From contig NZ_UFTA01000002.1 in assembly GCF_900445265.1 (NCBI RefSeq), positions 1,550,001 through 1,614,000 on the forward strand: a stretch of 64,000 bases of DNA. The letters are read 5' to 3'. Position 1 is the first letter of the stretch; each line of letters starts with the position of its first letter. This DNA is from Anaerococcus octavius (GTDB lineage: Bacteria; Bacillota; Clostridia; Tissierellales; Peptoniphilaceae). Made by a program: the position numbers and the translations under genes. The notes under the pieces are model-generated. The model did not search any database, was not told the origin of the DNA, and was given only the letters and a program-made list of their open reading frames with translations. This document shows positions 35,338 through 49,192 of the stretch, in pieces.

Positions 35338-38300
35338 TTAATCTAAATTTACATCATAGATGGCAGGTACTTGGTTAGATTTAATGTCACTTGAATATTG
35401 AGTCTTTACACATCTATCTAAGACATATTTTAGATCGTTGTTATCTTGATATTTTTTTATAAAGATAACTTTCGAATTTTTATCAACAGCTATAATTGTA
35501 TTATTAACTCTGTTATTTAAATACGCGAGTACTGATCCATTTGTATAAATATCTCCTAAATCTAAATTATGAGCTTTTATAGAGTCATTTAATATTTTTG
35601 GACTTGCTGCATAATTTAAAAGTTCTATTGAAAAATCTTCACTTACGTATTGGTGAGCATTATTCCACATTTGAAATGAACTTTCTTCTTTGTAATTTCC
35701 TAAAAGATAAATTGTTAAATCTTTATCGCCTATGTCAGAAATTTTTTTATAAGTGCTGTCATTTCTTAGAAGATTTATGTTTTTTATATCTCTACCATAA
35801 AATTTTTGATTTTGATTTTTTTCTTCAGCTGAAAGTCCATCGTAATCTCCCCTATTTTCTCTTTGGTTAAAAGTTATAGGAAAATTACTTGCTAATTCTT
35901 CACTATTTGCAGGAGCTATATATTGTGGCTCGTGATCTTTATTGTCACTTGATATTACTTCACTTGATATTGGTGGGAAATCATCAGATCCATCTTCTGC
36001 TGAATATTTTGTTTTTAGCGCTCTATTTACTAAAGATTCTACATCTTCATTTGTAGCATATCTTTTTACAAATAATAATTTTCCATCTTCGTCAGTTACA
36101 ACTACATATGGTGATGAAACTTCTTTATCAAAATCAAATTTTGCTCCACCATAGTAGAAATTATTTTTTATATCGTTCATATCATAGGATTTAAACATAT
36201 AGTTTAGATCGTCGATTGCCTTATAATTTGAAATCTTAACTAGATTTATATTATCTGTATTTAGGTAAGCTGAATTTTTCCACATTATTCTAGATTTATT
36301 ATCCTGTGGAGATCCTACTAACATAACATTTACTTTTTTATCTAAGAAATCTTTAATATAAATATTTTCTTCATCCATACTATTCATCATATAAAGATTC
36401 ATATCCTTACCGTAGTATTTTTTGTTGACATCTTTTTCGTTTGGCTCAAAGATTCTATAGTCCCCTCTTTCACTACGTTGGTTAAAGGACATTGGATAAA
36501 TTTTATTTGGATCATCTTCTTTTTTAGGAATTTCATTTAGCACATCGTAGTTGCCAATATCTTTATAAGAATCAGTTATAGTTTGGTTAACTGCGCTTGT
36601 ATTTAAAGTCCTATCTATAACATATTTTATGTCTTCGTTAGACTTATATTCTTTACTAAATAAAAATCTTTGATTTTTATCAATTACTACTATTGTTGGT
36701 TTTTGTACATTAAATAGTGTATTGTATGAAGCTGATACATAAATATCTTTTTTTACATCATATAAACTTTTAAATCTTGCTTTTTCAGCATTTATAGCTG
36801 TTTGACTACCTAGATAGGAAACATTTATTAAATCATAATCACCATCAGCAATGTATTGAGCATTATCCCACATTTTAATAGTTTCATCTTTTCTATAATC
36901 ACCTAGTAGAAGAATTTTTATATCTTTTTTGGAAATTTTATTTAATTTCACTCTACTATTGTCAGATTTTATAAGAACTGCTTTTGAAAAATCATTGGCA
37001 TATTTGCTATTAAATTTCATTTCCTCATCGCTCATGCCCTTATAATCTCCTCTTTTCTTTCTTTGATCAAAAGAAATTGGATAATTATTTGAGAAATTAT
37101 CTAGGCTTAAAGCCTTGTAATTATCATTATCAGCATAATATCCATTTAACATATTAAATCTTCTTAGTAATTCATAATTAGATTTATATGGGAATACATT
37201 TATTACTGCTCCGTTTTTATCTAAAACAACTACTTGGTTTTTATTTGATCTAAATTGTCCATTTAGTGAGTTTCCTCTATAGAAAGAATCTTTATAAAGT
37301 TTACCGCTACTGATAGTTTCAAGGTCTTTTGCACTTGCATTTGTAACTACATTTACAAAGTTAAAGGCCTTATTATCTATATTTGAGGAATTTTCAAACA
37401 TTTTTCTAGAGTTTTTATCAATCCTATCTCCCATCAGAAAAATACTTGGACGTTTTTTATCGATGATGTCTCCTATTTTTATAGGCTTATTATCTTTGTC
37501 ATATAAAACTAGATTGTTGTAGGTATTACCATATCTAGCTTTTAGATTTATCATAGTAAGATTATCTGTTGTCTCGAAAAATCCTAGGGCATTCGCACCT
37601 TCAAATGACAGTGGGAAGTTTTGTCCTTTTACTTCTACATCTATAGGATTTTTTGGTTTTTCTGACTCTGAATCAGGATCTGGACTTGGTTTTGGATCTG
37701 GTTTATGGTCTGGCTCTGAATCAGGATCTGGATTTATAGGCTCATCACCAAGTTGTACTTCTAAATCTTTTTTGTATTCTTTAAATCCTTCTCTGTTTAT
37801 TCTTACCTTTATTTTATACTTGCCAAGGCTATTTTCATCAGAAGTTGGGAATGATATTTTTATATTACCCTTAGCATCTGAAGTTGCTGATTTATTAAAT
37901 ATTTCTTTTTGACTTGGATCTATTAAAACTGCACTTGCTGTGGCTTTATCTAGTAAAGAATTATTTAAATCTTTTGCAACAATACTTAAGTTTATGCTAT
38001 CTCCCAAATCGTATTTGCTTTTGTTAGTAGAAATATCTGCCTTCATTTGTAAAAGATCTGGAGTATTTGCATCTACTATTTCATATTCTAAGAATTTGAA
38101 AGTATTTTTGTAATCTGCATCTAACAATTCTACTTTTAATTTATATTTTCCTAGAGAAGTTTTATCATTGGTTCCTATCTTAAAAATATGTCTACCATTT
38201 TTATCCGTTTGCCTATTGTAGGATACACTCCTGCCAAAAGGATCTACCAAGGTGTATTTGATATTTCTATTTGCAAGAGCTTTTCCTGTTTTGCTATCTT

Positions 38301-41300
38301 TAATTTCTACATTTGTTTCTACAACTTCTTTGCGTTTTATGCGAGCACTTGGAATGCTGATAGAAATATTTGCCTTGCCGTTACTATTTACTTCTACATT
38401 TGGGTCTACATTTGTATCTACGATTTTTATATTTTGCTTAGCTAGGATTTCTTTAATATTATCAAAATCTTTTTCATCTATAAGATTTACTATTCTACCA
38501 TCTTCGTTTAGAACTAAAATTTTATTTCCCTTACCAAGTTTTAATTTTCCATTGCGAAGATTGTTTTCACTATCGATAGCACTATATGATATAAGTCGTT
38601 TCAAATTATTTTCTTTTAAATAGTCTATATCTAATTTTGGACTTATTCTCATAAAGTTATATGAATCGTGAGATAATTTTGCAAATTTTTCTAAGCTTGG
38701 GTCTTTTTCTCCTGCAAATAATACTAAGCTTGGCTTATCTAGATCAAAATTATCGCCTATCATTTGGTCTTTACCTGCAAAGTCTTTTACATTTTCTGCT
38801 AAAATATTTTTGCCGTATAGGTTTTTAATGATTTTTTCATTTTCTAAGTCACCCTTTAAGTGGTCAAAATATGCATTTTTCTTTGCAGTATCGTAAGGTG
38901 CAAAGTTATCAGCCTTTTCTTTGCTTGCTATATTGAAAACAACAGCTGAATTTGTGTCTTTATAGCCATCTTTACTTGCTTTTGCAATAATTTTATATTT
39001 ACCTGGATAGGTATTATCAGCAAGTTTTATTTTTAAATTTGCTTCTCCCAAATTGTCTGTTTTTATTTCACCGCTATCTAAAACTGTATTAGCAAGGTCA
39101 AGAATTTTATATGCTACATTTGCTTTTGCAATATAGTTATTATTTGTATCTAATGATTTTAATTGGAAAGCTAGTTCATTTTTAGGATTATAAATTTCTT
39201 TTTCTCTTTTTATAGTTAAAGCAAGGTTTTTGTTGTAGGAATCATTATCTATATCAGCTATCTTGATATATTCTTCCATGCCTTCTTCAATGACACGGAC
39301 TGATTTAAATCCTTTTGATTTTAGTTCTTTTAAAACGTCATCATTACTTGCTTTGTTGCAAACTACAAATAACTTAGAGTTTTTGCTAATGCTATCTAAG
39401 AAAACATCAAAATCTTTATCATTATAGTCAAGGTTAAATGAATCTTTGATATGAGCTCTGTCAAAGGATGATTTTGCCCTTATATCTAGAATAAATGGTT
39501 TATTTTTCTCAATATAAGCACCTACATCATTTGCCTTTATTTTGCCAATGTATTCCTCGCTAGTTTTTTCAATAGATTTATTAGTTACAAAAATCACTTG
39601 GCGAAGTTTTTTACTTTCGAATTTATCTTTTGAAATATCAAAGTTAAGAATGTATTTACCTTCATTTTCTAAATTTACATCAAAAGATAGATGACCATCT
39701 TTGTCTGTTTTTAAATTTTCTTGATTTTTGCCAGTTTTACTTGCAATAGCTACTTTAACATATGCATCATCTACTTTATTGCCCTTTTCATCTTCTAGAT
39801 CTAGATTTACCTTTGCCTTAGCTAAATCTTCATAGACTTTTTTGTCAGTAGTAACTTTTGCTTTTAATTTTGTTAGTTTTGGTCTTTCTTTTGCTACAAA
39901 ACTTACTGTTTTTGCAAGAGACTTGTAATTTGATTTTTCTGCCTTAAAGCTTACTTCATATTTTCCAGGTATTAATTTTAAATTGTAAGCCCAATTAGCT
40001 TTTCCCTTATCATCTGTTTTACTTCTATCTACAATCACCTTGCCATCTGGTGTTTTTATAGAAATATTTACATCAGCATTTTTTACAGTATTGCCGAATT
40101 CATCCAAACTTATTAATGAAATTTCTGGTTTTTCGTCTACAAAGTATTGGTCTTTTTTATTTTTTGCATCTACTGTTAGTTCTTTATAATCAGGATTGTC
40201 TTCACCAAATCTTATTTTATAATTAGACTTTGTTGACGGATAATTATATGCAGTTGCATAAGCACTTATAGAATATTCTCCAGCTGATGTATAGGCTTTT
40301 GGTGTCATATAAATAAATACATAGCCATTATAATCAGTAACCTTTTTGATTTTGGTTTCTTTTTGGTTTGGATCTACTATACTTAGTTCCACAGATGCAT
40401 TTCTTTTTGGCTTGTTATTTTCATCCTTTACTTGAACTTTTATATAAGCTGATTCGTTTAGCTTATAATCTTTTTTAGCTGATTCAAAGGAGATATTTAG
40501 GTATTTACCTTCTTTTTTTACAAAGAAAGTATCAGATTTTTCTATATCATAATATCCATCTTTAAAGGCAGTTGCGTCTACTTTGTACATACCAGTTGCA
40601 TTTTTGTCTGTTATGTCCATAGAAAATGCTGCTTTACCTTCTTGATCTGTTTTTAAATCTAATTCGTAAGATTTTTGATTTGGATCAGTTATAGTTAATC
40701 TAACATTTGCATCTGAAATTGCCTTTCCTTCATGGCTAACTTTAAAAGTCATATCTACACTTTCTTTATCAGCCATATACTCATCTTTTGCCATATCTAT
40801 GTCAAAATCAAGTTTTGCCATTTCAGCTGTATTTCTATCTACTAGTAGATCTAGATTTTCAGTAAATGGATCAAATCCACTTAGGCTTGCATCTACTTTT
40901 AAATTATAGTTACCTTCCTCTGTAAAATTATCTTTTGATAAATCAAAAATTGCTTCTCCGTCTTTGTTTGTATAAAGATTTTTCTTTATTTCTTTATTTG
41001 ATGGAGTAGTTATTGTTAGATTTACTTTTGCGTATCTTTTTATTTCTCCATATTTGTCGCAAACTTTTGAAACAAGTTTTACACTATCATTTGGTCTGAT
41101 CTTATCTTTATCCAAACTATTTGTAACAAATAATGGGTTTTCTATACTTGGAGCGAAATCTTTACTTTCTACATTAAAGGTATTTATACCAATTAATTTA
41201 TCTTTGTAATAAATATTTATTCTATATTTACCAATGGCAGCACTATTATCAAGTCTTACATTAAAATTAGCTTCACCTGTTAGATTTGTTTTTAAATCGT

Positions 41301-43251
41301 ATTTAAATTTTTGATTGTGACTAGTTACTATTTCACAAACTATATCTTTATTTACTATTTGGTTATTATCTTGGTCTTTTAGACCTATATTTATACCTAC
41401 TTGTTCTCCTTGCAAGTAGCTTTGCTTTTCTGAATGTATATTTGCTTTAAATTCTGCATTTGATTCATCTACTTTTATTCTCATAGTATCAAAAACTTTG
41501 CTAGAATTTTTAGCTTTTGCAGTTATAACGCATTCACCATAGCCAATCGCTTTGACTTTACCAGCTTTATCTACTTCACAAACCGTTCTATCGGAGCTTT
41601 CCCATCTTAAATCACTTGCTTTTACATCTGCAGGTTTTATAGCAACTGGAAGAGAAACTTCATCTCCGATTTTCATTAATTTTTCTTTTTCTTTAAAATT
41701 TATAGACTCGATTTTTTGACTTTGGTCGTCATTTTCATCAATATGGTCAGCATCGGTAGTAAAAGCTTTTAGTGATACATTTGCATTTGGGATTTGATCG
41801 GTAAGATCAGTCCATTTTTCGCCTTCTTTACTTACAAAAGATTGACCTGGATCAGCGGTAACTTTTGAAGAAAAGCCTTTGATTGGTCTTTCTATTGGTA
41901 TAGGATATTTATATCCTGGAGTTTTCATTCTGACAATTACTGCAAATTTAGATCCTTTTGGTATAAAAGTATCTTCTACTTTTACTTTTTCATAACCTGC
42001 AAATTCCATTTTACCTGTTTTTATACTTGTTTTATCAGTTAGTCCGCCGTTATTTTCTATATTTGTATTTACAAAAACTTCGTATTCGGCATTATTTGCA
42101 GATGTCCACAAGCCTACATTTGTTAAATATGTATCTTCTTTCACTGGACCAAATACATTTGCATAGTAAGACTCTTCCCCAAGACCTACTTGGCTAGTCA
42201 TGCCTAGTTTGTCGTATTGCCAAATTTTTTCGTTTGGATTTAAATCTTTTAGAATATATTGGGAGTTCTGAGTTCCTATATTTTTGTCATAATATGAAAC
42301 ATAGTAGTAACCACCTTGGGTACCCCAATTTGTTCCCCATGAGTTTTTACAAATCCAAGCACCATCACCTTGTGGAGTTGTTTTAAAATTTTTTCTACTA
42401 TAGTCATCATCCCAACCAACAATGGTTATAGCGTGATTTGGAGCTTGACCTCCGTTATAATAATGAGCCATAGTTTTTTTATTTAAATAATCATCTCCAC
42501 CCATTACAGCTGAGTAAATACCGCCATTTTCCATGATCATTCTCTTTAAAACATCATTATCGGTAGCATCTCTTTTGTCTGGTAAAAAGTAGGCACGTGT
42601 AAGTTCTTTTGCTACTGGCAAATCTTCTGGAGAATTTCCGTTAAAAATATCGTATGGGTCATCTTTTTCTAAAACAGGACCAGATCTACGTGCTAAGTAG
42701 GCAGAAGAAACTGTTCTTGTTCCACCTTCGCTAGGACCCCAGTCAAAACCATGAGTATTTCTCATATGTTTTTCAGAAAAATCCATTCTCTCATCAGGTA
42801 GTAAAACTGATTCGGCAGATCCATAAGTTGCAAATGCCCAACAAGATCCATTTGGTCCTTGGTCTTTTACACTTGTAACTTTCCCTTCATCTCTTAGATC
42901 ATATTTATTACTAATCGTAAAAAAGTTATTAAATCTGCTATATCTTCTTGGCAAAGTTTTCTTTTTTGCTTTACTATCTATAGAACTATAATTTGTATAT
43001 ATATCGTAAGGGTCTTTTTTTATCGGATTATCTTTTTGATCTTCGTTATTAAATTTATCATTTAATATTGACTTTTCGTATAAGTCAGCATCTTCCTTGT
43101 TTGGATTTATATTTTTGTCTACTTCATTAAATTCTACTAAGTCGTTACTTTGGTTTTTATTATTTTCTCCCGTCGCAAATGATGGGTAAGCTATTTGCGT
43201 AATCATGGATAAAGATAAGATTACAGAAAAAATTTTAGCTTTGTTTTTCAT
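35338..43251 (-). CDS. Giant secreted papain-like (C1) protease with Ig-like, rhodanese and thioredoxin-like repeats
   Basis: ATG 43249-43251 follows AGGGAG; an upstream start at 43305 lacks a site. The 2637 residues open with a signal peptide. The C1 peptidase (about 115-335) has Gln131 and Cys137 in KDQGPNGSCWAF, His273 in NHAITIVGWDD and Asn303 in KNSWGTNWG. A lectin-like region (about 345-505) and a Big_2-type Ig domain (about 512-595) follow, then about nine Ig/MG2-like repeats of ~100 residues. Among these sit a rhodanese-like domain with Cys1298 and a cysteine-free thioredoxin-like unit (about 1455-1605). After a Pro/Asp linker (1839-1867) come four more thioredoxin-like units. Units 2-4 open with an RGDY motif (Arg2067, Arg2262, Arg2467). 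No LPXTG is present. Probably secreted, acting on host or peptide substrates; target unknown. Confidence 0.85.
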   Translation of the reverse strand: MKNKAKIFSVILSLSMITQIAYPSFATGENNKNQSNDLVEFNEVDKNINPNKEDADLYEKSILNDKFNNEDQKDNPIKKDPYDIYTNYSSIDSKAKKKTLPRRYSRFNNFFTISNKYDLRDEGKVTSVKDQGPNGSCWAFATYGSAESVLLPDERMDFSEKHMRNTHGFDWGPSEGGTRTVSSAYLARRSGPVLEKDDPYDIFNGNSPEDLPVAKELTRAYFLPDKRDATDNDVLKRMIMENGGIYSAVMGGDDYLNKKTMAHYYNGGQAPNHAITIVGWDDDYSRKNFKTTPQGDGAWICKNSWGTNWGTQGGYYYVSYYDKNIGTQNSQYILKDLNPNEKIWQYDKLGMTSQVGLGEESYYANVFGPVKEDTYLTNVGLWTSANNAEYEVFVNTNIENNGGLTDKTSIKTGKMEFAGYEKVKVEDTFIPKGSKFAVIVRMKTPGYKYPIPIERPIKGFSSKVTADPGQSFVSKEGEKWTDLTDQIPNANVSLKAFTTDADHIDENDDQSQKIESINFKEKEKLMKIGDEVSLPVAIKPADVKASDLRWESSDRTVCEVDKAGKVKAIGYGECVITAKAKNSSKVFDTMRIKVDESNAEFKANIHSEKQSYLQGEQVGINIGLKDQDNNQIVNKDIVCEIVTSHNQKFKYDLKTNLTGEANFNVRLDNSAAIGKYRINIYYKDKLIGINTFNVESKDFAPSIENPLFVTNSLDKDKIRPNDSVKLVSKVCDKYGEIKRYAKVNLTITTPSNKEIKKNLYTNKDGEAIFDLSKDNFTEEGNYNLKVDASLSGFDPFTENLDLLVDRNTAEMAKLDFDIDMAKDEYMADKESVDMTFKVSHEGKAISDANVRLTITDPNQKSYELDLKTDQEGKAAFSMDITDKNATGMYKVDATAFKDGYYDIEKSDTFFVKKEGKYLNISFESAKKDYKLNESAYIKVQVKDENNKPKRNASVELSIVDPNQKETKIKKVTDYNGYVFIYMTPKAYTSAGEYSISAYATAYNYPSTKSNYKIRFGEDNPDYKELTVDAKNKKDQYFVDEKPEISLISLDEFGNTVKNADVNISIKTPDGKVIVDRSKTDDKGKANWAYNLKLIPGKYEVSFKAEKSNYKSLAKTVSFVAKERPKLTKLKAKVTTDKKVYEDLAKAKVNLDLEDEKGNKVDDAYVKVAIASKTGKNQENLKTDKDGHLSFDVNLENEGKYILNFDISKDKFESKKLRQVIFVTNKSIEKTSEEYIGKIKANDVGAYIEKNKPFILDIRAKSSFDRAHIKDSFNLDYNDKDFDVFLDSISKNSKLFVVCNKASNDDVLKELKSKGFKSVRVIEEGMEEYIKIADIDNDSYNKNLALTIKREKEIYNPKNELAFQLKSLDTNNNYIAKANVAYKILDLANTVLDSGEIKTDNLGEANLKIKLADNTYPGKYKIIAKASKDGYKDTNSAVVFNIASKEKADNFAPYDTAKKNAYFDHLKGDLENEKIIKNLYGKNILAENVKDFAGKDQMIGDNFDLDKPSLVLFAGEKDPSLEKFAKLSHDSYNFMRISPKLDIDYLKENNLKRLISYSAIDSENNLRNGKLKLGKGNKILVLNEDGRIVNLIDEKDFDNIKEILAKQNIKIVDTNVDPNVEVNSNGKANISISIPSARIKRKEVVETNVEIKDSKTGKALANRNIKYTLVDPFGRSVSYNRQTDKNGRHIFKIGTNDKTSLGKYKLKVELLDADYKNTFKFLEYEIVDANTPDLLQMKADISTNKSKYDLGDSINLSIVAKDLNNSLLDKATASAVLIDPSQKEIFNKSATSDAKGNIKISFPTSDENSLGKYKIKVRINREGFKEYKKDLEVQLGDEPINPDPDSEPDHKPDPKPSPDPDSESEKPKNPIDVEVKGQNFPLSFEGANALGFFETTDNLTMINLKARYGNTYNNLVLYDKDNKPIKIGDIIDKKRPSIFLMGDRIDKNSRKMFENSSNIDNKAFNFVNVVTNASAKDLETISSGKLYKDSFYRGNSLNGQFRSNKNQVVVLDKNGAVINVFPYKSNYELLRRFNMLNGYYADNDNYKALSLDNFSNNYPISFDQRKKRGDYKGMSDEEMKFNSKYANDFSKAVLIKSDNSRVKLNKISKKDIKILLLGDYRKDETIKMWDNAQYIADGDYDLINVSYLGSQTAINAEKARFKSLYDVKKDIYVSASYNTLFNVQKPTIVVIDKNQRFLFSKEYKSNEDIKYVIDRTLNTSAVNQTITDSYKDIGNYDVLNEIPKKEDDPNKIYPMSFNQRSERGDYRIFEPNEKDVNKKYYGKDMNLYMMNSMDEENIYIKDFLDKKVNVMLVGSPQDNKSRIMWKNSAYLNTDNINLVKISNYKAIDDLNYMFKSYDMNDIKNNFYYGGAKFDFDKEVSSPYVVVTDEDGKLLFVKRYATNEDVESLVNRALKTKYSAEDGSDDFPPISSEVISSDNKDHEPQYIAPANSEELASNFPITFNQRENRGDYDGLSAEEKNQNQKFYGRDIKNINLLRNDSTYKKISDIGDKDLTIYLLGNYKEESSFQMWNNAHQYVSEDFSIELLNYAASPKILNDSIKAHNLDLGDIYTNGSVLAYLNNRVNNTIIAVDKNSKVIFIKKYQDNNDLKYVLDRCVKTQYSSDIKSNQVPAIYDVNLD

Positions 43252-43322: not shown

Positions 43323-44702
43323 TTAATTAAAATTGAAAATTAGATAACCTTCATTTACTGTTTGGTTATTTTCTTGACCTTCATCACCAAAATCAGGTGC
43401 TACTATTTCTTCAGATGCTCTTAGTCTATCTCTATTATTTGTATAAGTTTCATAAGAACCATATTGTAATTTATTTTCGTTATTTCCATAGCCAACTATG
43501 ATTTCTTCGTTATCACTTGGAGTAAATCCGTCTGGTAAGAAATCAAATGATGGGCTATTTAACCAAACAATTTTTGCTATTCTTGCAGGATCAGGGATTT
43601 CAGATTGAACATTAAATTCTCTCCAAGAAATTGCTTCGCCTTCTCTAAGTGCAAGTACTGATTCAAATTCTTGTGGGTGTTTTGCTCTTAATTCATTGAT
43701 ATAATCTCTTAAAATATAAACACCTTCTGCTGCTCTTTGATAAGAAACATCTTTTGCACGTCTAACATCAGTTGCTTTTCTTAATTCTTTTTCGAAAGCA
43801 TTTCTTTCTTCTGTTGTTAGATATTTGCTTGTTTTATTTTTTATATTACGTGCATCTCTTATTTCTTTATCAATTGTTCCACTTAACCATTTTGGAGAAG
43901 CATAGATATCTCTTTCAAGAAGTGCTGCTTGGCAAGCTGATTTTAATCTTGCATCAAGTTCTATTAAATCTTTAACTTGAATTTGGCTGTTACCTTTTTT
44001 AGCAATATCATTTATCTCTTGCATAAGTGAAGTTCTTACAAAATCTCTTTTACCTTTAACTCCAACTTCAGATAAATCATCTCTATAATATTTATTTAAT
44101 AATTTTTTTGCTTCTCTAACGTCTTTGTTAAATACTCTTTTAAGATAAATTGTTGCAAAGTCATCAGCTGTTAAGTCTGGCATTTGTACTAATTCATCCA
44201 TAACATTTGAAATTCTTTCGCAAGCTGCTTCTATATCATCAACTGATGCAAATGGGTTAAAAGCTGTTACTAAAGCAATAGCTACTTCTCCAGCTGCTTT
44301 GCTGTGAGCTGCTTGTACTTTATAAATTAATTCTGTTGAACATCTATGGATAAAGATACCTGTTAGTCCTAAAAGTTTTATTCTAGGAGCTATAGAATCT
44401 AGGTCATAGATTGTATCTGGGTTATATCTTTGAGCTTGTGGTGGTAGTTCAAAAGCTCTATCTTCTGCTAAAGTTACCAAATCTTCTTGGTAAGCTTGCA
44501 TTAAAGGAACATTTTTAACTTTGTTTTCTTCTAAGACTGTAGCGCCTTCAAGCATTTCAGATTCTGAAAGTTGTGGAATATTATCTTGGTATTCTTCCAT
44601 TAAGGAAGCTTCGCTTTCGCTACTTGCACTTGAAATTGCTGGTGCACCTACATTTGCTAGCATTAGCATAGCTAGTAAAGATGCTAAAATTTTGTTTTTC
44701 AT
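43323..44702 (-). CDS. Secreted CAMP-factor-like protein, paralogue 1
   Basis: The 459 residues start with a signal peptide (KNKILASLLAMLMLANVGAP, cut near SSA). The central region (about 100-270) resembles CAMP-factor pore-forming proteins: an AHSKAAGEVAIALVTAFNPF helix, then PDLTADDFATIYLKRVFNK and a helical segment. The C-terminal ~190 residues have no match that I recognise and end with conserved GYGNNENKLQYGSYETYTNN. The next gene upstream is a paralogue of identical length and layout. CAMP factors bind membranes and help lyse host cells, but that function here is inferred from motif memory, not from an alignment search. Confidence 0.65.
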   Translation of the reverse strand: MKNKILASLLAMLMLANVGAPAISSASSESEASLMEEYQDNIPQLSESEMLEGATVLEENKVKNVPLMQAYQEDLVTLAEDRAFELPPQAQRYNPDTIYDLDSIAPRIKLLGLTGIFIHRCSTELIYKVQAAHSKAAGEVAIALVTAFNPFASVDDIEAACERISNVMDELVQMPDLTADDFATIYLKRVFNKDVREAKKLLNKYYRDDLSEVGVKGKRDFVRTSLMQEINDIAKKGNSQIQVKDLIELDARLKSACQAALLERDIYASPKWLSGTIDKEIRDARNIKNKTSKYLTTEERNAFEKELRKATDVRRAKDVSYQRAAEGVYILRDYINELRAKHPQEFESVLALREGEAISWREFNVQSEIPDPARIAKIVWLNSPSFDFLPDGFTPSDNEEIIVGYGNNENKLQYGSYETYTNNRDRLRASEEIVAPDFGDEGQENNQTVNEGYLIFNFN

Positions 44703-44748
44703 AATTATCCTTCCTGATATTTTTTTACTTACTAATGAAAACTAATCT

Positions 44749-46128
44749 CTAATTATTTGGATCGGTAAAATCCGGATAAATCATTTCTGGATTTGACCCA
44801 TCCATATTAGTAGTTATAGTTTCATCACGTAAAGAGCTTCTATTTGTAACATAGCTATTATAATTGCCATAGTGAGCTTGTTGGGCTCCAAAACCGATTA
44901 TAATATTAGAGCTTTGTGCTTGCATGCCTTGAGGGATTTTATCAAATGTTGGAGATACAATCCATTTAATATCTGCAACTTGGTAAGGTTCGATGTAAGA
45001 ATTTGGTATATAAAGATTAAAATCTCCAAATACCTCTTTATTTAAAATTTCTGGGTATTTTGCTATAAGCTCTCCATCAAAATCCCATAAATCGTAGCAA
45101 GCTTCGGCTATTCGATCGTATCTAGGATTTCTTTCGATTTTTCTATCGGTAAGTTTTTTTACAAATCCTTGCCATGCGTCATAGTCTTCCTTGCTTATTT
45201 TACTTCTGTATTGGGCTTTTAATTTATTTTGCTTATTGATTTCTGGATTAATATTTTCGCTAATCCATTTTGGATTTGCAATTATTTCGCTAGATAAAAG
45301 TGCAGATGATGTAGCAGATTTAAGTCTAGCATCTAGTTCTACTAGTTGACCAAAGGTTATTTTTTGTCCTACTTGTTTATTAATATCATTTACTTCATTT
45401 TTATAAATATTTTGTATATATTCTTCCTTACCACGCATGCCATAAGTTCCCTTGCCAAAATATTTATTCTGTGATCTTCTTGCTTGACCAATATTTTTAT
45501 ACATCAATCTTTTTACATATATAGTAGCTTGGTCACCACTGGTTAAATCACGATAATCCTTAATTTTTTCTGCATTTTCATCAAATTTTTCAATAGCATT
45601 TAAAACATCTTTTCTGCCATTAAATGGATTTATAGCAACCATAATAGCTTCAAATGATATTTGTGCAGCCTTATTGTGGGCTTCTTGGATTTTATAAATA
45701 TATTCCGTTGTCATTTGATTTATAAATTGACTAACTTTTCTTAGTAATTGGATACGAACTCCAACTGAACCAATGTAGAAAAATTGTTGTGGATTTTCTG
45801 GATTTACTCCTTGTGGTATATTTATATTTCTATCTTCACATAATTCTATAAGTTCATTTTCTGCCTGACTCATCAAAGGTATTTCGTAGGCCTTATTACC
45901 TTCAATTCTAGCACCTTTTAAAACCGAACTTTCTTGTCTTAATTCTACATCACTTAATCTTAGATCATAGTCTTCGTTTATTTTTTCAATATCAGAGACT
46001 TCCATAGATTCTTCACTTGCACTTTCCATACTTTCTGCATATGACTTAGAACAATAGTAAAATGGCACCGAAGTGAATAAAAATGTTGCTAAAGTTAATG
46101 TAGAAAAAATCTTGTACTTTTTGCTCAT
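44749..46128 (-). CDS. Secreted CAMP-factor-like protein, paralogue 2
   Basis: This protein also has 459 residues, with a hydrophobic signal segment (FSTLTLATFLFTSVPFYYC). It shares conserved blocks with its neighbour in the same order: AHNKAAQISFEAIMVAINPF, YRDLTSGDQATIYVKRLMYK, LVELDARLKSATSSALL, NPKWIS, and GFGAQQAHYGNYNSYVTNR near the C-terminus. GGGAGG precedes the ATG. The unequal residue identity outside these blocks suggests an old tandem duplication. It probably acts outside the cell with its paralogue; a CAMP-factor-like membrane role is a hypothesis. Confidence 0.65.
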   Translation of the reverse strand: MSKKYKIFSTLTLATFLFTSVPFYYCSKSYAESMESASEESMEVSDIEKINEDYDLRLSDVELRQESSVLKGARIEGNKAYEIPLMSQAENELIELCEDRNINIPQGVNPENPQQFFYIGSVGVRIQLLRKVSQFINQMTTEYIYKIQEAHNKAAQISFEAIMVAINPFNGRKDVLNAIEKFDENAEKIKDYRDLTSGDQATIYVKRLMYKNIGQARRSQNKYFGKGTYGMRGKEEYIQNIYKNEVNDINKQVGQKITFGQLVELDARLKSATSSALLSSEIIANPKWISENINPEINKQNKLKAQYRSKISKEDYDAWQGFVKKLTDRKIERNPRYDRIAEACYDLWDFDGELIAKYPEILNKEVFGDFNLYIPNSYIEPYQVADIKWIVSPTFDKIPQGMQAQSSNIIIGFGAQQAHYGNYNSYVTNRSSLRDETITTNMDGSNPEMIYPDFTDPNN

Positions 46129-46159: not shown

Positions 46160-49100
46160 TTACTTTACAGAAAATTTTATTTCATCTTCTTTATCTGCAT
46201 AAGAAGATTTATTAACCTTTACTTTTAAAATATAATCTCCTTCTTTTAGGCTAGGTGCTTTGTAGGTAACTTTGCCTGTATAGGAAGATTTAAAAGTCTT
46301 TTCGTTAATTTTTTTATCTGAACTATCCAAAAGCAAACAAGTTATATTTGCATCTTTTAAATTATAATTTTTTTCATCTTTTGCAATAACTGTTCCGCTC
46401 ACTTTTGCATACTTTTTGTAAGTATCATTAAAACCTGTAATCTCTAAATTGATTGGTTTTTTATTTGGATCTATAAAATCTATCTTATATGATGCATTTA
46501 TTTTATCTTTGCTTTCGCTAGTCTCGCTAACTTCTATTTTGTAAGTACCTGGTCCTATAGTTTTAGTCGGTTTTATAAATAAATTAGCATTTGCTGAGTA
46601 ATCAGTAGTTTTTGTGAGAGTATGATTAAAATTATTTGGTCCTGTCACCTTTACATTAAACTTATAATTCTTTAAAGGATTTCCCTTTTGATCTTTAAAT
46701 GTTAATTTTATATTTGCCTTATCTCCTAAGTAGTATAATTTTTTATCTTGGCTAAAGCCTACTGAAATGCCTTCTTCTTTTTCATTTATCTTAAAACTAG
46801 ATTCACCTTCAAAATCTCCGCTTGATTTTGAATGTGCAATCACTTCTACTTTGTATTGCCCACTAGTATTATCTTTATCTAGGCTATAATTATAAGTTGC
46901 TATTCCTTGCTCATTTGTTCTTCCAGAACCTTTTTGAATTTTCCCGTTTGGACTGGTGATTTTTATATCAAAATCTGTATAAGCAAGTGCTTTTTTCCCA
47001 AGTCTTGTTGATATTTTCAGTTCTACTTTTTCATTCTTTGCGTATTCACTTTTTGATGGACTTATAGTTAAAACCGGATCTTGATCTTTTGTTTTTTCCT
47101 TATCACCCATACTTATATCAAAAGATTTTTCATAATCCTTAAATGAATCTCCAGATACTTTTATATCAAGTTTATATATGCCATCTTCTTTAATATGGTT
47201 AGTTGGAATGTACATATTTACATTTCCATTTCCATCAGTATAGACTGACACTTTTTTGCCATCTGCAAAACGTGCTTCTACTAAAGCATCTTTTAAAGAT
47301 CTTTTATTTTTATCTTTTACATTTATGTGAACTTTTAGATATTCATTTAGTTTTACCTTATCTTTTGGTAAATTAACATCAACTACTAATTCATTATTTG
47401 AGCTAGTGTCTACTTTTTTTACTATAACACTTACATTTTTGCTTATTCCTGAACCATCACTTGCAGAAACTATAATATTTGCTTTTCCTTCTCTAATAGC
47501 TCTTATTTCTCCATTTGTATTTACACTTGCTACATATGGATTAGATGATCTGTATGTAAGCTTTTTATTTGTAGCTTCTATTGGCAAAACATCTGCTTTT
47601 ATACTTTCTTTTTCGCCAACCTTTAATTCTATATTGTCTTTATCTAGGTTAATCTCGGAAATTTTTACAATCTTAGGATCAGGCTTATAATCAGGATCAA
47701 CATAGGAACCGGCTGGCTTTGTAAATGCTTTTAGACAAACATTTGTATTAGCCATTTGATTTGTTAGATCAGACCAGTTATATCCATCATAGGAAATAAA
47801 TGATTCGCCACTAGAAGCTCTTGCTCTAGATGAGTATCCCCAGATTGGTGTTTCCACCGGGATAGGGTAATTATAACCTGTAGTTGTAAATTTTATAATC
47901 GGTGCAAAATATGCACCTTGAGGAATTTGCTGTGGATCAAATTTAATAGTTGTGTAGCCTGCATATCTTATACTGCCACTGGCAACTTTTATTCTGTTAT
48001 TAAATCCACTATTTCCACCAATATTTGTGTTTACATAAACTTCATAATCTATATTATTAGTCGGAACAAAGACTCCAACTTCTGAAATTTGTAAATTTTC
48101 CCTAGCTGGTCCAAATACATTTGAAAACCAAGCTACTCTACCATTCCCTATATTGCTAGTCATTCCAAGAGGATCGTAATACCAAATTGATTTGTTTCTT
48201 TCTTTATTTTTTAATTGAAAAATACAGTTACTAGTCCCAATAATAGTATCGTAATAAGAAATATAATAATAACCACCCATGCCGCCCCAATTGGAACCCC
48301 ATGAGTTTTTAGCAAGCCATGCTCCATCACCAGGTGCACCCCATTTAAAATTTGATGCACTATAATTATCATCCCAACCGATTAAAGTTATAGCATGATT
48401 GCCCCAGCCATTTCCGTAATTATTATGGCCCATAGTATAAAAATTAGTAAAAGATTCATCTCCATTTACAGTAGTATATGCTGCACCATATTCCATAATT
48501 GCACGTTTTAGAGTTGCAAGATCATTTGCATTTCTAACATCTGGTATATACATAGCACTTTGAAGTTCTTTTACAGGTGTGAAATTAATAGGAGAATTAA
48601 AATCATAGGGGCTATATGGCTCATCTCTTTCAGAAATAGGACCTGACCATCTAGCAAGATAAGCTGCAGATATTTGACAAGATCCACCATCTTTTGGACC
48701 CCAATCGTAGCCGTGAGTATTTCTAAGATTTTTCTCGGAAAAATCATTGTTTTCACGTGGTAATAAAACAGATTCAGCAGATCCATAAGTTGCAAAAGCC
48801 CAACAAGACCCATTTGGCCCTTGGTTTCTAACAGGAGTTACTCTGCCTTCATTTCTTAAATCGAAACTAGCTGGCAAAAAATTTGCCATTTGCCTATCTG
48901 GATATGGATTATCTATAGCATCATAATCAGTATAAATTTTTAAAGGATCAACATTTACACCATTATTTTTGCTATCAGCACTTGCTCTTTGCTTATTAAA
49001 ATCTGGATTTATTGGAACCTGATTTATTATAATTTCTTGATTTAGACTTTCATCATTTAAAGAAAATCCTTCATTGTCTTCTTTTGCTTGATTAATATCC

Positions 49101-49192
49101 TCACTGGCTACTGCTTTTGGAGTATTTATAGTAAATACGAGTGAAATACTAAACAATAACATCAAAAGGACATGTTTTCTATTTTTTACCAC
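46160..49192 (-). CDS. Secreted papain-like (C1) protease with Ig-like repeats
   Basis: The preferred start is GTG 49190-49192 with GGGGG just upstream; a TTG at 49204 lies in that site. The 1010 residues share the layout of the first half of the giant protein: signal peptide, propeptide, and a C1 peptidase with Gln124 and Cys130 in RNQGPNGSCWAF, His266 in NHAITLIGWDD and Asn296 in AKNSWGSNWG. A lectin-like region (about 325-485), a Big_2-type Ig domain (about 505-590) and four Ig/MG2-like repeats to the C-terminus follow. It lacks the rhodanese and thioredoxin-like parts. As first gene behind a strong promoter it is probably the most expressed of the four. Confidence 0.9.
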   Translation of the reverse strand: MVKNRKHVLLMLLFSISLVFTINTPKAVASEDINQAKEDNEGFSLNDESLNQEIIINQVPINPDFNKQRASADSKNNGVNVDPLKIYTDYDAIDNPYPDRQMANFLPASFDLRNEGRVTPVRNQGPNGSCWAFATYGSAESVLLPRENNDFSEKNLRNTHGYDWGPKDGGSCQISAAYLARWSGPISERDEPYSPYDFNSPINFTPVKELQSAMYIPDVRNANDLATLKRAIMEYGAAYTTVNGDESFTNFYTMGHNNYGNGWGNHAITLIGWDDNYSASNFKWGAPGDGAWLAKNSWGSNWGGMGGYYYISYYDTIIGTSNCIFQLKNKERNKSIWYYDPLGMTSNIGNGRVAWFSNVFGPARENLQISEVGVFVPTNNIDYEVYVNTNIGGNSGFNNRIKVASGSIRYAGYTTIKFDPQQIPQGAYFAPIIKFTTTGYNYPIPVETPIWGYSSRARASSGESFISYDGYNWSDLTNQMANTNVCLKAFTKPAGSYVDPDYKPDPKIVKISEINLDKDNIELKVGEKESIKADVLPIEATNKKLTYRSSNPYVASVNTNGEIRAIREGKANIIVSASDGSGISKNVSVIVKKVDTSSNNELVVDVNLPKDKVKLNEYLKVHINVKDKNKRSLKDALVEARFADGKKVSVYTDGNGNVNMYIPTNHIKEDGIYKLDIKVSGDSFKDYEKSFDISMGDKEKTKDQDPVLTISPSKSEYAKNEKVELKISTRLGKKALAYTDFDIKITSPNGKIQKGSGRTNEQGIATYNYSLDKDNTSGQYKVEVIAHSKSSGDFEGESSFKINEKEEGISVGFSQDKKLYYLGDKANIKLTFKDQKGNPLKNYKFNVKVTGPNNFNHTLTKTTDYSANANLFIKPTKTIGPGTYKIEVSETSESKDKINASYKIDFIDPNKKPINLEITGFNDTYKKYAKVSGTVIAKDEKNYNLKDANITCLLLDSSDKKINEKTFKSSYTGKVTYKAPSLKEGDYILKVKVNKSSYADKEDEIKFSVK

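What the first reader, a model, noticed from the sequence alone, without database searches (positions are those of the whole stretch)
35338..43251. Giant C1 protease ends in cysteine-free thioredoxin-like repeats
Sequence shows five units of about 150 residues (about 1455-1605, 1878-2035, 2055-2218, 2251-2414, 2457-2617) sharing a hydrophobic strand, a Gly-Asp or Gly-Asn turn and a helix (LLLGDYRKDETIKMWDNA, VMLVGSPQDNKSRIMWKN, YLLGNYKEESSFQMWNNA), then a second strand and helix (TIVVIDKN with a closing YVIDR-type helix). The layout resembles thioredoxin or peroxiredoxin folds, but the CxxC position holds Gly, Asp or Lys. A secreted papain-like protease with such repeats is, to my knowledge, not described. 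The redox fold may have been reused for binding.
Basis: partly seen in the sequence, partly recalled or inferred. Interest (0 to 1): 0.82.

Follow-up and report, generated by a model that had tools for sequence, protein, structure and literature searches.

The report
Secreted protease with disarmed thioredoxin repeats
A very large secreted papain-like protease of an Anaerococcus-type bacterium ends in five repeats that descend from thioredoxin, a redox enzyme, but have lost its reactive cysteine pair, while relatives in nearby genera still have it, so the repeats probably now bind something rather than do redox chemistry.

Summary
A profile made only from relatives with intact CxxC finds all five (E 1e-15 to 6e-4). 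Those relatives (Fenollaria, Ezakiella, one Tissierellia MAG) carry rhodanese and two thioredoxin units, four of five with the protease; their units match Pfam Redoxin (7 of 9). In the MAG an in-frame TGA, a candidate selenocysteine, stands at the first Cys of the second unit. In the window lineage CxxC is gone (33 of 33 units): units 2-5 read [D/E/K]xx[S/T] and the rhodanese is decaying. Units 2 and 4 stay well conserved, and the former active site of units 2-5 more than the rest, which suggests non-catalytic binding. Binding is inferred. New variant of a known kind: redox-dead thioredoxin domains on a Cwp84-like protease.

The parts
35338..43251 (-). whole gene, 2637 aa, secreted multidomain C1 protease
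   Evidence: window-type relatives with open frames of 2369-2666 aa
43171..43251 (-). signal peptide, approximate, residues 1-27
   Evidence: read from the sequence; no predictor run
42271..42912 (-). papain-family peptidase domain (Peptidase_C1), residues 114-327, catalytic Gln, Cys, His and Asn motifs present
   Evidence: Pfam E 6.7e-25; motifs QGPNGSCW, NHAITIVGW, KNSWG
41758..42225 (-). Cwp84-type lectin-like domain, residues 343-498
   Evidence: Pfam PF18560 E 6.1e-42; best solved relatives 4d59/4ci7
41494..41709 (-). Big_2 domain, residues 515-586
39577..41454 (-). block of MG2/Big_1-type Ig-like domains, residues about 600-1225
   Evidence: seven MG2 stretches in the whole protein
39265..39531 (-). 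rhodanese domain, residues 1241-1329, Cys 1298 present but active-site loop degenerate (CNKASND against CRTQVRS)
   Evidence: Pfam E 1.4e-10; alignment; Cys kept in 2 and lost in 4 of 6 window-type proteins, the window's included
38920..39234 (-). Ig-like domain between rhodanese and unit 1, residues about 1340-1444
   Evidence: inferred from the MG2 stretch at the same place in L033, 1131-1206
38416..38916 (-). thioredoxin-like unit 1, residues 1446-1612, CxxC deleted; counterpart of the CGAC unit
37738..38415 (-). two Ig-like domains, residues about 1613-1838
   Evidence: MG2 best stretch 1742-1832
37126..37626 (-). thioredoxin-like unit 2, residues 1876-2042, DKNS at the CxxC site
36589..37092 (-). 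thioredoxin-like unit 3, residues 2054-2221, KDET at the CxxC site, Pro kept at the cis-Pro position
36001..36507 (-). thioredoxin-like unit 4, residues 2249-2417, DNKS at the CxxC site, Pro kept at the cis-Pro position
35389..35889 (-). thioredoxin-like unit 5, residues 2455-2621, EESS at the CxxC site
43323..44702 (-). CAMP-factor-domain protein 1 (partial domain match), next gene upstream
   Evidence: Pfam PF07373 E 1.6e-16, model positions 58-162 of 219; a CAMP pair stands beside the cys-less giant in 7 of 7 loci
44749..46128 (-). CAMP-factor-domain protein 2 (partial domain match)
   Evidence: Pfam PF07373 E 5e-15
46160..49189 (-). paralogous C1-lectin-like protease (1009 aa) without rhodanese or thioredoxin match

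Best explanation
The gene encodes a secreted Cwp84-type papain protease whose tail descends from a redox module (rhodanese, Ig, TlpA-type thioredoxin with CGAC, Ig-like domains, thioredoxin with CGGC) that related bacteria still carry with its thiols. In the window's lineage the module lost its chemistry: unit 1 lost the CxxC by deletion, the rhodanese is decaying, and the place of the single terminal thioredoxin is taken by four units with [D/E/K]xx[S/T] instead of CxxC. The four terminal units are most likely a non-catalytic binding array that holds a substrate or partner protein for the N-terminal protease, in the way the thiol-less b/b' domains of PDI bind substrates. Shown: domain order, homology to CxxC relatives, absence of CxxC, conservation pattern of units 2-5. 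Inferred: ancestral redox activity, the direction of loss, the binding role and its ligand.
For: A CxxC-only profile finds all five units. Unit 1 matches the CGAC group at 98.9% and unit 2 the CGGC group at 97.6%. The unit tree separates 12 N-terminal-position units (window type, L029, CGAC group, G107) from the 33 others, CGGC units included, at 99/98. CxxC relatives have the same domain order (L033 by Pfam; others by profiles) and match Redoxin and TlpA-type proteins. One CGGC-type unit has an in-frame TGA at its first Cys with the frame conserved to its usual end, in a genome with SelB and tRNA-Sec; this points to a catalytic role in the ancestor. Second-Cys position Ser or Thr in 26 of 27 C-terminal-position units of the seven cys-less C1 giants. 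Units 2 and 4 have 57% and 51% invariant columns over 6 orthologues against 42% for the Ig block and 17% for the rhodanese. Around the former active site of units 2-5, 53 of 84 columns are invariant against 252 of 587 elsewhere; 149 of 11070 overlapping sliding placements do as well. Two units of this family also end a giant subtilase (L032), so such tails are not tied to a papain thiol.
Against: No structure could be predicted. Alone, the window units match no thioredoxin family (one sub-threshold NCBIfam match, MauD, E 0.042 over 2333-2414). Units 3 and 5 have 38% and 35% invariant columns, below the Ig block. The cis-Pro position holds Pro in 2 of 5 window units. The active-site-conservation test fails for unit 1 (5 of 17 against 53 of 150) and is only nominal in single units (p 0.04-0.13); part of it may be core packing. 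The protease-domain tree puts the tail-less window paralogue inside the CxxC clade (100/94) and supports the cys-less giants as a group only at 83/75, so the history is not a simple line. The subtilase units do not have the [D/E/K]xx[S/T] pattern. No ligand is known.
Confidence: 0.55

Rival explanations
1. The C-terminal units are a cell-surface retention module, taking the place of the three wall-binding repeats of Cwp84.
For: Repeated units at the extreme C-terminus: 4 in the window type, 3 in L029, 2 in the subtilase L032. The window protein has no LPxTG and none of the 25 of 29 Pfam families shown for it is a wall-binding one. CWB2 was found in 1 of 11 genomes tested. Cwp84 carries three CWB2 repeats (passages of PMC4089489).
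Against: A general anchor should occur on many proteins; the window genome has the units in one protein only. The genome of L026 has 67 CWB2 matches yet its giant keeps the same tail. Sortases are present in 10 of 11 genomes. SLH anchoring in the window genome was not tested.
Confidence: 0.25
2. The units are decaying remnants without a function of their own, acting as spacers.
For: Unit 1 is missing in L027, the rhodanese has only 17% invariant columns, and units 3 and 5 are less conserved than the Ig block; degenerate fragments lie in G025 and G022.
Against: Units 2 and 4 are more conserved than the Ig block, and units 2-5 are present in 6 of 6 window-type genes.
Confidence: 0.13
3. The units are still redox-active or handle thiols, for example with cysteines of a partner.
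For: Relatives are CxxC proteins; window unit 5 has one Cys.
Against: No unit of the seven cys-less C1 giants keeps CxxC (33 of 33); the unit-5 Cys lies away from the site and is Thr in L026; the rhodanese Cys is lost in 4 of 6 window-type proteins.
Confidence: 0.04
4. The units are not thioredoxin-like but another alpha/beta domain.
For: No direct family match; a PDB profile search with the cys-less units lists 13 sequences up to E 10, 12 of them transferrin receptor, best E 0.08, and one thioredoxin-like protein at 1.7.
Against: Homology in register to CxxC units that match Redoxin and thioredoxin-family structures.
Confidence: 0.03

Closest known systems
Clostridioides difficile Cwp84 (C1A protease plus lectin-like domain; PDB 4ci7, 4d59)
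   Same: Protease and lectin-like domains in the same order; best solved matches, E 5.4e-36 and 3.8e-36. The Cwp84 paper already aligns an Anaerococcus hydrogenalis relative of these two domains (figure legend in PMC4089489).
   Different: Cwp84 carries three CWB2 wall-binding repeats (passages of PMC4089489); this protein has Ig-like domains, a rhodanese and thioredoxin-like units, and no CWB2 match was seen.
TlpA-type thioredoxins (Pfam Redoxin, Thioredoxin_2)
   Same: The pooled CxxC relatives of the units align at 97% with TlpA-type proteins of the order and match Redoxin.
   Different: Window units lack CxxC, lack the cis-Pro in 3 of 5, and are built in series into a secreted protease.
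PDI b and b' domains (thiol-less thioredoxin domains that bind substrates); calsequestrin (recalled)
   Same: Redox-dead thioredoxin domains in series; the substrate-binding role of b/b' is from the abstract and passages of PMC5013553.
   Different: Eukaryotic ER proteins (recalled); no sequence relation tested. Here bacterial, extracellular and on a protease.
Fenollaria/Ezakiella C1-rhodanese-thioredoxin giants (L033, L030, L031, L034)
   Same: Homologous protease, rhodanese and thioredoxin units in the same order.
   Different: They keep CRTQVRS in the rhodanese and CGAC/CGGC in two thioredoxin units; the window type has five units without CxxC.

Membership tests
Peptidase C1 with lectin-like domain (Cwp84-like) | Papain-family domain with Gln, Cys, His and Asn motifs | tested here: met
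Peptidase C1 with lectin-like domain (Cwp84-like) | PF18560 lectin-like domain directly after the protease | tested here: met
   143.9 bits against a cut-off of 27
Peptidase C1 with lectin-like domain (Cwp84-like) | CWB2 (PF04122) wall-binding repeats, as in Cwp84 | tested here: not met
   no PF04122 among the 25 of 29 families shown; none in the own genome
Thioredoxin superfamily (TlpA type) | sequence homology to accepted members | tested here: met
   only through the CxxC relatives; a direct match to Pfam thioredoxin families is absent
Thioredoxin superfamily (TlpA type) | CxxC active site | tested here: not met
   absent in 5 of 5 window units
Thioredoxin superfamily (TlpA type) | cis-Pro opposite the active site | tested here: inconclusive
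   Pro aligned in units 3 and 4 only; cis geometry not testable
Thioredoxin superfamily (TlpA type) | thioredoxin fold | not testable with these tools
   structure prediction switched off
Rhodanese | PF00581 match above the cut-off | tested here: met
   41.9 bits against 22.2
Rhodanese | active loop beginning with catalytic Cys (CRxxxR type; motif recalled and seen in the relatives) | tested here: not met
   CNKASND in the window: Cys present, the Arg residues of the loop absent; Cys absent in 4 of 6 window-type proteins

The most novel reading that the evidence does not exclude
Tissierellia built a portable extracellular sulfur/thiol relay (rhodanese plus TlpA-type thioredoxins, one perhaps with selenocysteine) into secreted surface proteins and proteases; in the Anaerococcus lineage the relay was disarmed and its last thioredoxin multiplied into a new pseudo-thioredoxin binding array with a [D/E/K]xx[S/T] signature, while a related cys-less pair was fused to a subtilase in Ezakiella.
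Probability: 0.35. Interest if true: 0.7.

Novelty: new variant of a known kind. Interest (0 to 1): 0.52.

Why it matters
It would give bacteria a parallel to the redox-dead domains of PDI, with living relatives that still keep the active form, so the change from enzyme to binder could be tested side by side. It also uncovers an extracellular rhodanese-thioredoxin module fused to proteases, including a candidate selenoprotein, in anaerobes that are known mainly as human-associated bacteria (recalled).

Tried and rejected
A PDB sequence-profile search with the cys-less units gave only chance-level matches, 12 of 13 to transferrin receptor. Pfam with the 33 cys-less units gave no thioredoxin or redoxin family among the 25 of 27 families shown. 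A direct profile comparison of window units with redoxins of the order gave at most 15.5% for a single unit group (unit 3 against the Prx set) and 6.3% for the pooled units 2-5; 13 sequences (8 CxxC, 5 without CxxC, called Prx here) were kept from the 30 loci held, after a first extraction that gave 10.

The idea that the thioredoxins keep the papain thiol reduced was set aside: units of this family also end a subtilase (L032), the module stands without a C1 domain in L028 and L095, and the window units have no CxxC. The peroxiredoxin reading was dropped (0.3% for the CxxC pool against the Prx set). RNA folding after the TGA in L028 shows a hairpin that is not better than shuffles (z -0.74), so a SECIS element is not shown. 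Phage records hold no match.

Rows dropped: L028 unit 2 (interrupted by TGA) was left out of the unit tree and the motif table. L027 has no unit 1. The fragments in G025 and G022 were not counted as genes. The two subtilase units (L032) are in the tree and the table but not in the 33 and 27 counted. Window unit 3 gave one off-target profile match to an Ig-like block (29%).

Full report
What is there. The ORF 35338-43251 on the minus strand encodes 2637 residues. Pfam places a papain-family peptidase at 114-327, a Cwp84-type lectin-like domain at 343-498, a Big_2 domain at 515-586, a run of MG2/Big_1 Ig-like domains, and a rhodanese domain at 1241-1329. The catalytic motifs QGPNGSCW, NHAITIVGW and KNSWG are intact. 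The best solved relatives of the N-terminal part are the Cwp84 structures 4d59 and 4ci7. That Anaerococcus has a protease with these two domains is known: the Cwp84 paper aligns one of A. hydrogenalis (figure legend); whether that one has the tail I did not see.

The five units. They lie at 1446-1612, 1876-2042, 2054-2221, 2249-2417 and 2455-2621. With 5-6 orthologues per unit, profile comparison links 8 of 10 unit pairs above 60% probability, with E-values down to 3.5e-34; the two failures are unit 1 with units 3 and 5. Of 35 comparisons with five other domain groups of the protein, 34 stay at or below 1.2% and one (unit 3 with an Ig block) reaches 29%.

Relatives with cysteines. A search of 130 genomes of the family found matches in 12. 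Six genomes, the window's own included, carry the window type: five of the window's genus and one of another genus; the other five are 62-86% identical over the C-terminal 768 residues. I count 31 genomes of the window's genus in the listing, so 5 of 31. A contig titled Anaerococcus sp. (L119) matches G029 of that genus at 100% over 4001 bases, hence the name. In L033 Pfam gives C1, lectin-like, Big_2, Ig-like domains, rhodanese, MG2, Thioredoxin_2 (E 8.2e-5, below its cut-off in the whole protein) and further Ig-like domains, and the second thioredoxin unit is found by our profile. In L030, L031 and L034 the C1-lectin part, rhodanese and two units were located by profiles; their Ig-like domains were not scanned. 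Their rhodanese loop reads CRTQVRS and their thioredoxin units read CGAC and CGGC. A Tissierellia MAG (L028) has the same tail without a C1 domain in its frame, with CRTQNRS in the rhodanese and CGPC in its first unit. A profile made from nine such CxxC units finds window units 1-5 at E 1.3e-15, 4.5e-10, 1.3e-4, 3.4e-15 and 6.4e-4 in a set of 217 sequences, against 3.1 bits for the best of 200 shuffles. In the whole-genome search with the same units only window units 1 and 2 were listed at the limit of 1e-8; with the cys-less profile, which contains them, all five are.

Why these are thioredoxins. Of the nine CxxC units, seven match Pfam Redoxin and five Thioredoxin_2 at E up to 1; the first member passes the Redoxin cut-off. 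In the PDB their profile meets 14 sequences at E up to 1: first an uncharacterized protein aligned through its own C-x-x-C (0.0008), then three thioredoxin-family proteins (0.0048-0.0065), later DsbG, ResA, thioredoxin and YkuV above 0.1; two glucansucrases at 0.08 look like chance. The pooled CxxC profile aligns to eight TlpA-type sequences of the order at 97%; the CGAC group alone reaches 95%, the CGGC group alone 62%. The window units alone do none of this (6.3% for the pooled units 2-5; NCBIfam MauD at E 0.042, far below its cut-off). Their membership rests on the CxxC relatives as a bridge, and the fold itself was not predicted because the tool is off.

What was lost. Units 2-5 read DKNS, KDET, DNKS and EESS at the CxxC site and unit 1 has a deletion. 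Over seven cys-less C1 giants (33 units) the second position is Ser or Thr in 26 of the 27 C-terminal-position units, and the cis-Pro position is Pro in 14 of 27. The rhodanese Cys is kept in the window and L023 but is Ser, Asn, Ser and Gly in the other four window-type proteins. The unit tree of 45 rows separates 12 N-terminal-position units (window type, L029, CGAC/CGPC and the G107 unit) from the other 33, the CGGC units included, at 99/98; several long branches make details unsure, and the root is not known. That CxxC is the older state is inferred from its being the rule in the superfamily. The Ezakiella MAG G048 has both types: a CxxC giant (L034) and a cys-less giant (L029). The protease-domain tree puts the window's tail-less paralogue inside the CxxC clade (100/94), and the cys-less giants group at only 83/75, so tails have been lost or exchanged.

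Is it decay or reuse? Over six orthologues the invariant columns are 74% in the protease, 76% in the lectin-like domain, 42% in the Ig block, 17% in the rhodanese, and 57, 38, 51 and 35% in units 2-5; unit 1 is absent in L027. So units 2 and 4 lie above the Ig block and units 3 and 5 below it. Columns around the former CxxC and cis-Pro are invariant in 53 of 84 cases in units 2-5 against 252 of 587 elsewhere; unit 1 shows no such excess (5 of 17 against 53 of 150). Of 11070 overlapping sliding placements 149 do as well. I read this as a retained site in units 2-5 and a decaying rhodanese and unit 1. It is suggestive, not proof.

Selenocysteine. In L028 the second unit has TGA where the first Cys of CGGC stands, and the frame after it runs to the usual end. 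That genome has SelB above the cut-off and tRNA-Sec. Eleven redoxin matches, all in other families of the order, also carry one TGA. No SECIS is shown. A Cys/Sec exchange at this place would suggest that the ancestral unit is a working redox site.

Context. A pair of genes with a partial CAMP-factor match stands next to the cys-less giant in 7 of 7 loci; CAMP genes were also seen near two CxxC giants (L033, L030), whose neighbourhoods, like those of L031 and L034, were scanned only in part. Two cys-less units of the family end a giant subtilase in Ezakiella coagulans (L032). In G107 a rhodanese-thioredoxin(CGGC) frame overlaps the end of an SLH-protein frame and lies beside a subtilase gene. 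So the tail is tied to secreted proteins of several kinds, two protease classes included. Beyond the family nothing was found: 12 of 249 genomes of the order at E 1e-8 and 4 of 391 sampled genomes of the class at E 1e-10, all within the family. The genome-contig scan used two rhodanese patterns taken from the CxxC type, so it could not see the window type; it kept 80 of 114 relatives, and a profile check of those 80 loci found thioredoxin units of this family only in the five already known.

Mechanism. Best reading: an active Cwp84-like protease whose tail binds rather than reduces. The comparison with PDI b/b' domains is one of working principle (abstract and passages of PMC5013553), not of membership. 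The anchor rival takes its force from the three wall-binding repeats of Cwp84 (passages of PMC4089489), but the units occur in one protein only in the window genome, and L026's genome, rich in CWB2 (67 matches), still uses this tail. Sortases are present in 10 of 11 genomes tested though the window protein has no LPxTG.

Literature. Seven searches listed no paper whose title or abstract start describes such a protein; three of the listings were capped (20 of 89, 10 of 16 and 12 of 94 papers). An eighth looked for PDI papers. I saw passages of two papers and otherwise only search listings. The held library lacks most subscription papers.

Noticed in passing
   Followed up: partly
L032:167-8068 (-): Giant subtilase (S8, PA, fn3_5, FIVAR, List_Bact repeat) of Ezakiella coagulans ends in two cys-less thioredoxin-like units of the same family.
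   Followed up: partly
window 43323-46128: Pair of CAMP-factor-domain proteins beside a C1-lectin protease and the giant; conserved as a pair in 7 of 7 cys-less loci.
   Followed up: partly
L095:3731-9351 (G107): SLH-protein frame overlapped by a frame with rhodanese (CRTDNRS) and thioredoxin (CGGC), next to a subtilase gene; may be one gene with a frame break or two genes.
   Followed up: partly
G053: Relative in another genus has 67 CWB2 wall-binding matches while the other 10 genomes tested have none at E 0.001.
   Followed up: no
G025:C162:1644-1751 and G022:C2:663062-663157: Short degenerate fragments of the giant's C-terminus (E 2.2e-6 and 7.9e-4), with stops.
   Followed up: no
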